Assembly (NCBI RefSeq): GCF_009497775.1
Contig: NZ_CP031012.1
Span: 186,001-250,000 of the forward strand
Length of the DNA: 64,000 bases
Source: Alcaligenes faecalis
GTDB taxonomy: Bacteria > Pseudomonadota > Gammaproteobacteria > Burkholderiales > Burkholderiaceae_B
Reading direction: 5' to 3'
A model generated the notes under the pieces. That model searched no databases, was not told where the DNA came from, and saw only the letters and a list, made by a program, of their open reading frames with translations. Shown here in pieces: positions 36,596 through 39,113 of the stretch. Position numbers and translations under genes: made by a program. How positions within the stretch are numbered: the first letter of the stretch is position 1; each line of letters opens with the position of its first letter.

Positions 36596-37918
36596 ATGGA
36601 ATGGCACATGGCCTTGATCCTGCTGCTGGGATCACTTTTTCTCTTGATGGCCATCGGCACACCGGTGGTCTTTGCCTTCTTGTCCGTGAACTTGCTGGGT
36701 GCGTGGCTGTTTCTGGGTGAAGCGGCTGGTTTGGCCCAATGGGCGCGCAACACCACCGCCTCTATTGGCAGCTTTTCCTTAACTCCTATCCCCTTATTCG
36801 TACTGATGGGAGAGGTGCTTTTTCATACCGGATTGGCCTTCAAAGCCATCGACTCCATCGAACGCATGATCTCGCGCGTGCCGGGCAAACTGTCCATCGT
36901 CAGCATTCTGGGCGGTACGACCTTCGCTACCTTGTCGGGTTCGTCCATTGCCAACACGGCCATGATGGGCGGCGTGATGTTGCCAGAAATGCTGCGTCGC
37001 GGCTATCACCCCACCATGGCCATGGGACCCATCATGGCAGTAGGCGGTATCGCCATGCTGATCCCACCTTCGGCATTGGCTGTCATGCTGGGTAGCCTGG
37101 CTGGCATCTCCATCGAACGACTACTGATTGGCGGCATCCTGCCCGGCATGTTGATGGCAGCAGGCTTTCTGGCCTACGTGGTCGTGCGCAGCCGCCTGCG
37201 TCCGCAAGACGCACCCATGAGTGACGAAGATCCAGCCACTCGTCTGAAAGGCTGGGCCTTGTGGAAACCCTTCGTGTTTAACGTTGTGCCATTGCTGGGT
37301 ATTTTTATTGCGGTGGTTGGCTCGATGCTGGCCGGTTGGGCATCGCCCACCGAATCGGCCGCGATCGGCGTGGTGGCTTCTGTAATCGCTACCATCGCCT
37401 ACCGTGCCCTGACCTTGAAAGCCTTGTGGAAAAGCCTGATCGAAACCGCCAAAGTCTCGGTTGTGATCCTGTTCATCCTGGCCGCGTCCACCACCTTCGC
37501 ACAACTGCTCAGCTTCTCCGGCGCCAGCGCAGGCTTCCTGGGCATGATCAAAGACTACAACCTGTCGCCCTTCGTGCTGGTGATCTGCATGTTGCTGGTG
37601 CTGCTGGTCATGGGCATGGTGCTGGATCAAATCTCCATGATGATGATCGCCTTGCCCTTCTTCATGCCCCTGGCCCTGGCCGCAGGCGTGGACACCGTCT
37701 GGCTGGGCGTGATGATCCTGATCGCACTGGAAATTGGCCTGCTGACCCCACCCTTCGGCCTGCTGCTGATCGTGATGCAAAGCGTGGCACCGCCATCCAT
37801 CCGCTTGCCCCATATCTACAGCGCCGCCGTGCCCTTCCTAGCCATAGAAATAGCCGTACTGGCGCTGGTCCTGTTCATCCCCTGGATTGCCATAGGCCTG
37901 CCAGGACTGATCGGATAA
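36596..37918 (+). CDS. TRAP transporter large permease, DctM type (system 3)
   Basis: The 440-residue polytopic protein has DctM landmarks: GGTTFATLSGSSIANTAMMGG, GPIMAVGGIAMLIPPSALAV and EIGLLTPPFGLLLIVMQSV. It completes TRAP system 3. Two hairpins follow, the second being a strong terminator. Confidence 0.93.
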   Translation: MEWHMALILLLGSLFLLMAIGTPVVFAFLSVNLLGAWLFLGEAAGLAQWARNTTASIGSFSLTPIPLFVLMGEVLFHTGLAFKAIDSIERMISRVPGKLSIVSILGGTTFATLSGSSIANTAMMGGVMLPEMLRRGYHPTMAMGPIMAVGGIAMLIPPSALAVMLGSLAGISIERLLIGGILPGMLMAAGFLAYVVVRSRLRPQDAPMSDEDPATRLKGWALWKPFVFNVVPLLGIFIAVVGSMLAGWASPTESAAIGVVASVIATIAYRALTLKALWKSLIETAKVSVVILFILAASTTFAQLLSFSGASAGFLGMIKDYNLSPFVLVICMLLVLLVMGMVLDQISMMMIALPFFMPLALAAGVDTVWLGVMILIALEIGLLTPPFGLLLIVMQSVAPPSIRLPHIYSAAVPFLAIEIAVLALVLFIPWIAIGLPGLIG

Positions 37919-38000: not shown

Positions 38001-38040
38001 AAAAACCTCAGTTCGGCACATGCCAAACTGAGGTTTTTTA
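38001..38040 (+). terminator. Strong Rho-independent terminator of TRAP system 3
   Basis: AAAAACCTCAGTT (38001-38013) pairs with AACTGAGGTTTTT (38026-38038). Inside, GGCA pairs with TGCC after one mismatch. A T-run follows. Confidence 0.9.
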
Positions 38041-38437
38041 TACTCGATAGTGCTGATCGTTTTTGCCGCCTATTTATGTGTAGCAAAGTGATTGATGTGG
38101 AAGCGGTACATAAGAACTTTAACGATCTTGCTGTTCATCACCGAGGTCGATTTGAGAGACGAGCAGGCTGCAGACAGTGTTCGTACCGACAGCGTTCAAG
38201 TCAGCTTTTAAGGCTTAAGAGCATAAGCCCACGTCTTTAACTTGTGTGTAGTAAAGCGTACTTAGACATTGGCAAATACGGGCTTAGGACATTGATTGCC
38301 TACCCCATCTTTCCAAGCAACCTCATTGATCAAGCAGCTCTACGATCAACCATTTCTACGACCAACCCTCTCGTTAAGAACACGAAGTCGGAGCATTCAA
38401 ACCCCAATCAACAATCGTCCGATAAAAGATGCTGTGA

Positions 38438-38668
38438 GCTGATTGAGGGGCTGTCCCGGTGTTGGGGCGGATCAGGTGACTTGCCGCAGGCAGATAATTG
38501 CGCAGGGGTGCAAGCACCTTGCTGTTTGAGTCCGACGTTTGTGGTTTGTCCGGGGGACAAACCACCGGACGAGTTCAAGGTGCGCCCGTAGCGATTATCT
38601 GACCAGGGCACCGGCGCGCAGCGCCGGCAAGTTACCAGCCCCGACACCGGGACAGCCCCTTAATCAGC
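38438..38668 (+). repeat. 231-bp nested inverted-repeat element, possibly a structured RNA or MITE
   Basis: Outer arms of 30 nt (38438-38467 and 38639-38668) pair with only two mismatches. Inside, a 12-nt pair (38475-38486 with 38625-38636), an 11-nt pair (38491-38501 with 38591-38601), an 8-nt pair (38514-38521 with 38576-38583), a 5-nt pair (38530-38534 with 38566-38570) and an apical 11-bp perfect hairpin (38541-38551 with 38555-38565) stack in order. All four mismatches in the 12, 11 and 30-nt arms would be G-U pairs in plus-strand RNA and A-C on the other strand. A competing 7-bp hairpin (38611-38617 with 38621-38627) shares bases with the 12-nt pair. The ends read GGGGCTGTCCCGG, like insertion sequence termini. 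No reverse transcriptase or transposase is adjacent. Confidence 0.8.
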
Positions 38669-38807
38669 GTCTTCTAGTCACCTTCTTCATCGCGTCGAAC
38701 AGTTGCTGACTCCAAGCCTTGAGTCATCCCGATCTCTACACGCTGGGCATCTAAACCCAACCCCATCCAGTCAAGCCATTCCAAAGAAAGCTGTTGAGAA
38801 AGTGCCT

Positions 38808-39113
38808 TTACTTCCGCACAGGATCAGCATAGATCCCGCCATCCCGCAAAGCCAAAGCGACCTTATCTTCCCGCTGCACTGACTCATCCAGCACACGAGC
38901 AATCAACACCGGCCCTGCATCGCTGGCCACCGTTGCCAGCATATACACGCTCGGCTTCTCGCCAGAGGAGAGGGCACTACGCGTCAGTTCTGTGACCACA
39001 CCAGACGTACATGTCTGCGCCTCAAACTCATCCCCATGACACTTCGGACACAAGAACCGCGCCGGAAACACCCGATGATCACACTGCACACAACGAAAGA
39101 CAGAAGGACTCAT
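38808..39113 (-). CDS. DUF35 OB-fold zinc-ribbon protein
   Basis: The 101-residue protein has a rubredoxin-like zinc ribbon (Cys8, Cys11, Cys22, Cys25 in FRCVQC and LCPKC) followed by an OB-fold domain, the DUF35 architecture. DUF35 proteins pair with thiolase-fold enzymes, and in steroid side-chain degradation they form the active complex with aldolases such as Ltp2. Its ATG overlaps the thiolase-like stop by 4 bp. The longer frame to 39272 runs through that gene. Confidence 0.9.
   Translation of the reverse strand: MSPSVFRCVQCDHRVFPARFLCPKCHGDEFEAQTCTSGVVTELTRSALSSGEKPSVYMLATVASDAGPVLIARVLDESVQREDKVALALRDGGIYADPVRK

What the first reader, a model, noticed from the sequence alone, without database searches (positions are those of the whole stretch)
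38438..38668. 231-bp nested inverted-repeat element with no adjacent protein gene
Five successive pairings plus a perfect 11-bp apical hairpin fold nearly the whole element into one branched rod. The 30-nt outer arms carry insertion-sequence-like ends (GGGGCTGTCCCGG). It sits in an 889-bp gene-free, A/T-richer stretch. This could be a MITE, a decayed transposon remnant, a non-coding RNA, or a substrate for an element encoded elsewhere. I cannot link it to a named family.
Basis: partly seen in the sequence, partly recalled or inferred. Interest (0 to 1): 0.8.

Follow-up and report, generated by a model that had tools for sequence, protein, structure and literature searches.

The report
Dispersed structured RNA from mobile element
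The odd folded stretch is one of about thirty scattered copies, in this Alcaligenes genome, of an RNA-like element whose pairing stems change sequence but stay paired, and in a related species it forms the ends of small mobile elements that sit beside gene terminators.

Summary
The hairpin is real and far beyond chance (fold z -13.6). It is no lone remnant: this Alcaligenes genome has 29 copies. They fold alike; the outer stem differs from copy to copy (arms 39% identical) yet stays paired, while internal loops are conserved. A covariance model finds relatives in 68 of 268 genomes and 23 of 43 genera of the family, where BLAST on a sample saw only Alcaligenes. Covariation is massive, and mismatches are mostly G-U, rarely A-C, on one strand, so that strand is selected, most simply as RNA. 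No Rfam family reaches its threshold in the sequences scanned. In one relative (81 copies) the element forms the ends of transposase-less units with terminal inverted repeats (GGTTCTTCG...), apparent 8-bp target duplications and insertion in A/T tracts, often beside terminators. In the window's genome such ends are undetectable, but most sites compared are shared with relatives and the outer stem is more conserved than its upstream flank. Best reading: a MITE-like family built around an undescribed structured RNA; here an old, immobile, still selected copy. Transcription, the mobilising enzyme and the RNA's task are not shown.

The parts
38438..38668 (+). the whole element; the plus strand is the sense strand of the structure
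   Evidence: strand by G-U against A-C counts; covariance model match 38463-38645, 209 bits
38438..38468 (+). P1, 5' arm of the sequence-variable outer stem
38638..38668 (+). P1, 3' arm
38475..38485 (+). P2, 5' side (pairs with 38628-38636 and 38607-38608)
   Evidence: columns 13-23 of alignment A2
38628..38636 (+). P2, 3' side
38491..38507 (+). P3, 5' side (38491-38501 and 38505-38507)
38585..38601 (+). P3, 3' side
38514..38521 (+). P4, 5' side
38576..38583 (+). P4, 3' side
38522..38529 (+). conserved internal loop CUGUUUGA, opposite GAGUU at 38571-38575
   Evidence: conserved columns of A2
38530..38570 (+). P6, apical stem (5 + 11 pairs) with GGG loop
38611..38627 (+). P5, hairpin at the three-way junction
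38421..38437 (+). upstream GATAAA and conserved TGTGA just before P1; possible -10 region, weak
   Evidence: weak A/T preference and TGTGA in own copies (27 of 28 rows used); no promoter-like site found
38669..38674 (+). start of the 3' tail (GTCTTC), shared with many own copies
   Evidence: the longer tail is not recognisable above shuffles
38004..38039 (.). terminator-like hairpin and T tract behind the upstream gene
   Evidence: read by eye; not listed by the scan

Best explanation
This is an old, fixed copy of a dispersed structured-RNA element. A conserved RNA core (P2, three-way junction with P5, P3, P4, a UGUUUGA/GAGUU internal loop, apical P6) is closed by a long outer stem P1 whose sequence is nearly free but whose pairing is kept. 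In at least one relative (G005, same genus) two such elements facing outward form the two ends of a small transposase-less transposon: terminal inverted repeats GGTTCTTCG..., apparent 8-bp target duplications, target an A/T tract that often belongs to a transcription terminator. SHOWN from sequence: the family, the fold, covariation, strand bias, the units with terminal repeats and the target tract, shared sites in this genus. INFERRED: the sense strand is transcribed outward, the conserved loops bind a protein of the mobiliser or the host, and in the window's lineage the RNA outlived its mobility and is kept for its structure. As concrete task I commit to a stable RNA barrier or end-protecting structure between mostly convergent transcripts, at about one in three.
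For: 29 copies in this genome; 98.9% of cells paired, 40 of 56 pairs changed on both sides, 604 such cells against 158 in shuffles, slid controls 34-43% paired; relatives in 68 of 268 family genomes with 52 of 56 pairs changed on both sides; P1 mismatches 20 G-U against 2 A-C in 27 own copies, inner helices 106 against 7; terminal repeat pattern 85 times in G005 against 3 for the reversed control; target duplications better matched than between units (0 of 20000 permutations; 5 of 17 exact) and 17 of 17 units in A/T runs; 15 convergent, 7 tandem, 0 divergent neighbour pairs of 22; P1 arms about 0.9 identical between species against 0.61-0.80 upstream of -50.
Against: No transcript data. No promoter-like site in the window stretch. 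No intact terminal repeats in this genome (6 matches against 7 for the control), and the window tail does not exceed its best shuffle. No mobilising enzyme found; ISL3 copies of the genus have other ends. Target duplications lie in low-complexity tracts: exact matches are also 7% between different units, and one of the 5 exact ones is all A. The downstream flank is also well conserved (0.73-0.98), so the contrast is with the upstream flank only. P1 in orthologues also shows 32 broken changes beside 59 double changes that pair. In tandem gene pairs the orientation does not fit a simple sense 3'-UTR role.
Confidence: 0.7

Rival explanations
1. DNA level only: the element folds as single-stranded or cruciform DNA (transposition end, recombination or replication site), and its arms stay matched because one arm is copied from the other by template switching. 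No RNA has a role.
For: It explains near-perfect arms with free sequence and the loss by deletion that left one arm at one site.
Against: A process symmetric between strands predicts equal G-T and A-C mismatches; observed 47 against 5 in P1 of 56 copies (related, so not independent) and 20 against 2 in this genome. Conserved internal loops and bulges are not explained.
Confidence: 0.15
2. Host-owned non-coding RNA genes, spread long ago by any means, now with a common task in trans (binding one regulator or ribonuclease); the mobile units of G005 are a side branch.
For: Most sites compared are shared between species (19 of 24 own loci among 20 fetched G008 loci), and the element is conserved.
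Against: Copy numbers vary from 0 to 81 within the genus; one G000 site is lost; terminal repeats and target tracts in G005.
Confidence: 0.2
3. 3'-end insulators: the structure stops read-through or protects 3' ends between convergent genes, whatever its origin.
For: Convergent excess (15 of 22, no divergent pair; background not measured) and G005 units behind terminators.
Against: Terminators already stand beside several copies (read by eye); in tandem pairs orientation is mixed.
Confidence: 0.25
4. One reading: a remnant of an ordinary insertion sequence whose ends are the 30-nt outer arms.
For: Inverted arms in a gene-free stretch.
Against: The arms are the least conserved part between copies (39% against 74%), and the unit ends in G005 lie outside P1.
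Confidence: 0.03

Closest known systems
Prokaryotic MITEs (PMC10969869 and PMC6382973, passages only)
   Same: No transposase, terminal inverted repeats, short target duplications, A/T-rich intergenic targets, transcripts that could fold.
   Different: A conserved multi-helix core with covarying stems, free outer-stem sequence, strand bias, two outward elements per unit, terminator tracts as target; no parent IS found.
REP / REPIN and GTAG- or CGTC-tagged palindromes (PMC3733652, passages)
   Same: Dispersed, extragenic, often in inverted dimers; many copies here have CGTC at the 3' foot of P1 (read by eye).
   Different: REPs are 20-40 bp; CGTC stems are 8-9 bp. Here about 230 nt with several helices, and units with 8-bp duplications in G005.
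ERIC / RU long intergenic palindromes (listing and passages)
   Same: Long intergenic palindromes, dispersed, able to fold as RNA.
   Different: ERIC is, by recall, one conserved sequence; here the outer stem is free and only loops and pairing are kept. Not tested by sequence.
Right-end RNAs of IS200/IS605-type elements (recall only)
   Same: A structured RNA reads outward at the end of a mobile unit, so that flanking DNA would follow it.
   Different: No nuclease gene seen in the units looked at; 8-bp duplications; RNA at both ends. Resemblance only, no membership claimed.

Membership tests
MITE (G005 units) | terminal inverted repeats | tested here: met
   85 matches in G005 against 3 for the reversed control
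MITE (G005 units) | target site duplication | tested here: met
   17 units: mean 6.8 of 8 against 6.0 between units, 0 of 20000 permutations, 5 exact; low-complexity tracts
MITE (G005 units) | mobilised by a resident IS with the same ends | tested here: inconclusive
   only ISL3 was tested; the right end of the G007 copies differs
MITE (window copy itself) | terminal repeats and duplication | tested here: not met
CGTC/GTAG REP | 20-40 bp unit with the short stem of the family | tested here: not met
   about 230 nt, P1 median 31.5 columns in 56 copies; criteria
Rfam families (release 15) | score at the gathering threshold | tested here: not met
   none in the window; E-value scans of L001, L036, L042 and L126, L117, L177, L227 gave sub-threshold hits only, best RT-15 at 23 of 82 bits on the opposite strand
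structured non-coding RNA | covariation beyond shuffled and slid controls | tested here: met
structured non-coding RNA | transcribed | not testable with these tools
   no RNA-seq available
integron attC site | integrase-recognised sites in direct orientation | not tested
   considered from general knowledge only

The most novel reading that the evidence does not exclude
A new class of transposon-end RNA: a terminator-targeting, transposase-less element encodes at both ends an outward-reading structured RNA that takes part in its own mobilisation (binding the trans-acting enzyme or steering it to terminator tracts), with a sequence-free but pairing-locked stem, and hosts later keep it as a fixed RNA.
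Probability: 0.17. Interest if true: 0.92.

Novelty: new variant of a known kind. Interest (0 to 1): 0.76.

Why it matters
A structured-RNA family with up to 81 copies per genome in more than 20 genera, below threshold for Rfam 15 where scanned and not found by BLAST outside one genus, would explain many long, gene-free intergenic stretches in this family of bacteria. It offers hundreds of natural compensatory variants of one fold, and ties mobile DNA, terminators and RNA structure together in a way that can be tested in ordinary laboratory strains.

Tried and rejected
Plasmid and phage collections: no DNA match for the window copy in either, none for L117 in plasmids or L126 in both. Rfam: only sub-threshold hits. 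CGTC-tagged REP: size and stem criteria fail. ISL3 as parent: the right end in G007 differs; other IS families were not tested. A second, decayed element beside the window copy: none found. A conserved peptide in the spacer of G005 units: long open frames run through the palindromes in several frames; the typed test peptide was never searched (one search failed). Contig ends near copies in G033 as a hint of a long transposon interior: ORFs there showed no transposase by eye, not tested with profiles. Integron attC: considered, not tested. Guide-like matches of the window's P1 elsewhere: none listed by the BLAST at E 0.001; short ones would be missed. Literature: listings of eight searches (only the first part of each list was shown for some) name no paper on this family; passages of six papers were seen, none read whole. 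PMC12306157 lists Alcaligenes faecalis in a table of its REP survey; whether those counts include pieces of this element I could not tell. Most subscription papers are not in that library.

Full report
THE OBSERVATION. The neighbours are a DctM-type transporter ORF ending at 37918 and, on the other strand, a small ORF with a zf-ChsH2 match ending at 38808, then a thiolase-like ORF. The gap is 889 bp.

A FAMILY, NOT A SINGLETON. A DNA search of the own genome (4.16 Mb, one contig) gave 31 rows, two of which are the query's own arms, so 29 places; the covariance model also gave 29. By BLAST 9 of 101 genomes matched, all of one genus. A motif scan of the GTDB collection returned 38 stretches, all titled Alcaligenes (the window's own record may be left out there).

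THE FOLD. The 29 copies of this genome were folded one by one and give one rod with the same order of loops. P1 differs from copy to copy: 22-nt left arms are 39% identical on average, the core 74% (27 copies). On 56 Alcaligenes cores 98.9% of cells pair, 40 of 56 pairs have changes on both sides, 604 such cells against 158 in shuffles, and slid controls give 34-43% paired. The rows are related, which inflates the shuffle contrast but not the slide contrast. One truncated copy was left out of the 57 aligned.

WIDER DISTRIBUTION. Model R1 matched 9 of 10 genus genomes: 14, 14, 25, 28, 29, 31, 33, 37 and 81 copies, none in G006 (at most 150 candidates were scored per genome). It matched 68 of 268 family genomes and 23 of 43 genera, with strict filters. 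Of 398 genomes drawn from the phylum 4 matched: the window's own and three of one genus of another family; that family gave 3 of 119. Those three are weak (E 4e-7 to 5e-5) and have only a very short apical stem; I treat them as probable relatives only. Among 45 loci scanned outside the genus, 52 matches, these and partial ones included, keep the fold: 52 of 56 pairs change on both sides and 96.0% of cells pair (that alignment is fitted to the model).

STRAND. With scoring that treats all mismatches alike, P1 holds 20 G-U and 2 A-C in 27 own copies, 47 and 5 in 56 copies, 31 and 4 in 31 copies of other genera. Inner helices hold 106 and 7, and 81 and 10. Processes symmetric between strands predict equality. 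Either the sense strand is selected as RNA, or it is transcribed and gathers C-to-T changes; both need one active strand. Selection on one strand as single-stranded DNA is not excluded.

SITES. Of 24 own loci, 19 had flank matches among 20 fetched G008 loci and 19 among 20 fetched G004 loci, some on one flank only (not every G008 and G004 copy was fetched). In 39 orthologous comparisons (two more dropped for upstream identity under 0.55; others without full flanks were skipped unseen) P1 arms are 0.86-0.97 identical, the upstream flank beyond 50 nt 0.61-0.80, the downstream flank 0.73-0.98. P1 there has 59 double changes that still pair, 28 single ones that pair, 31 single and 1 double that break; 17 G-U and 7 A-C (alignment errors included). 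At one site where relatives carry the element, the own genome has a deletion that left one arm, and G009 has a short form with P1, P2 and P5 only. Neighbours: 15 convergent, 7 tandem, 0 divergent of 22 loci with both neighbours called, of 24; the genome-wide background was not measured.

THE MOBILE UNIT. In G005, 23 divergent pairs, that is 46 of 81 copies, have their starts 332-371 nt apart (my count). Of eight pairs aligned, seven show GGTTCTTYG-like or CRAAGAACC-like ends on at least one side and one (L214) shows none. Tails fall into types X and Y and others; of ten dimers with both tails printed, five had one X and one Y. The end pattern occurs 85 times against 3 for the reversed control; paired by eye the ends give units from about 0.17 to 0.74 kb, the smallest perhaps without the RNA core. 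Of 24 such units 17 had both flanks at hand: 5 have exact 8-bp duplications (one all A), the mean is 6.8 of 8 against 6.0 between units of the same tract type, 0 of 20000 permutations as high, and 17 of 17 lie in A/T runs, often beside a hairpin seen by eye. In other genera the tail after P1 is often G(G/T)CTYAAGAAC (44 copies printed); duplications were not tested there.

CARGO. Between divergent elements I saw a ParE toxin with a PaaA2-type partner (L176), a DUF2971 protein (L250) and an ORF that I would call AbrB-like by eye (L177). These are three examples, not a census.

THE WINDOW COPY. It is one sense-strand element. No second one lies near it, terminal repeats are not recognisable, and a terminator-like hairpin stands about 400 nt upstream. 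So I read it as an immobile descendant whose RNA core is still selected. What selects it is unknown; no promoter-like site was found, and upstream of own copies there is only a weak A/T preference.

Noticed in passing
L176 1939-2451; L250 1053-1919; L177 1635-1877: Genes between divergent elements in other genera: ParE with PaaA2-type partner, a DUF2971 protein, and an AbrB-like ORF (the last by eye). Possible cargo.
   Followed up: partly
L055 830-1246: A PIN-domain (VapC-like) ORF stands before one copy of this genome.
   Followed up: partly
G003:C1 3023945, 3069195, 3114445: Three copies at exactly 45,250-bp steps, which looks like a tandem duplication or an assembly artefact.
   Followed up: no
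L036 2275-4001 and L055 1577-3300: Two identical copies about 55 kb apart share their downstream ORF, as in a segmental duplication.
   Followed up: no
L050, L053: Two copies lie in similar surroundings with an ORF that I take, by recall, for the antisense of 23S rRNA; perhaps beyond rRNA operons.
   Followed up: no
L182, L188, L193, L181, L176 downstream of P1: The 3' arm or tail is repeated in tandem behind several copies, as if 3' ends were duplicated.
   Followed up: no
G000 copies, alignment A2: P3 and P6 variants recur in different combinations among copies, as if inner parts were exchanged by gene conversion while P1 stays site-specific (seen by eye).
   Followed up: no
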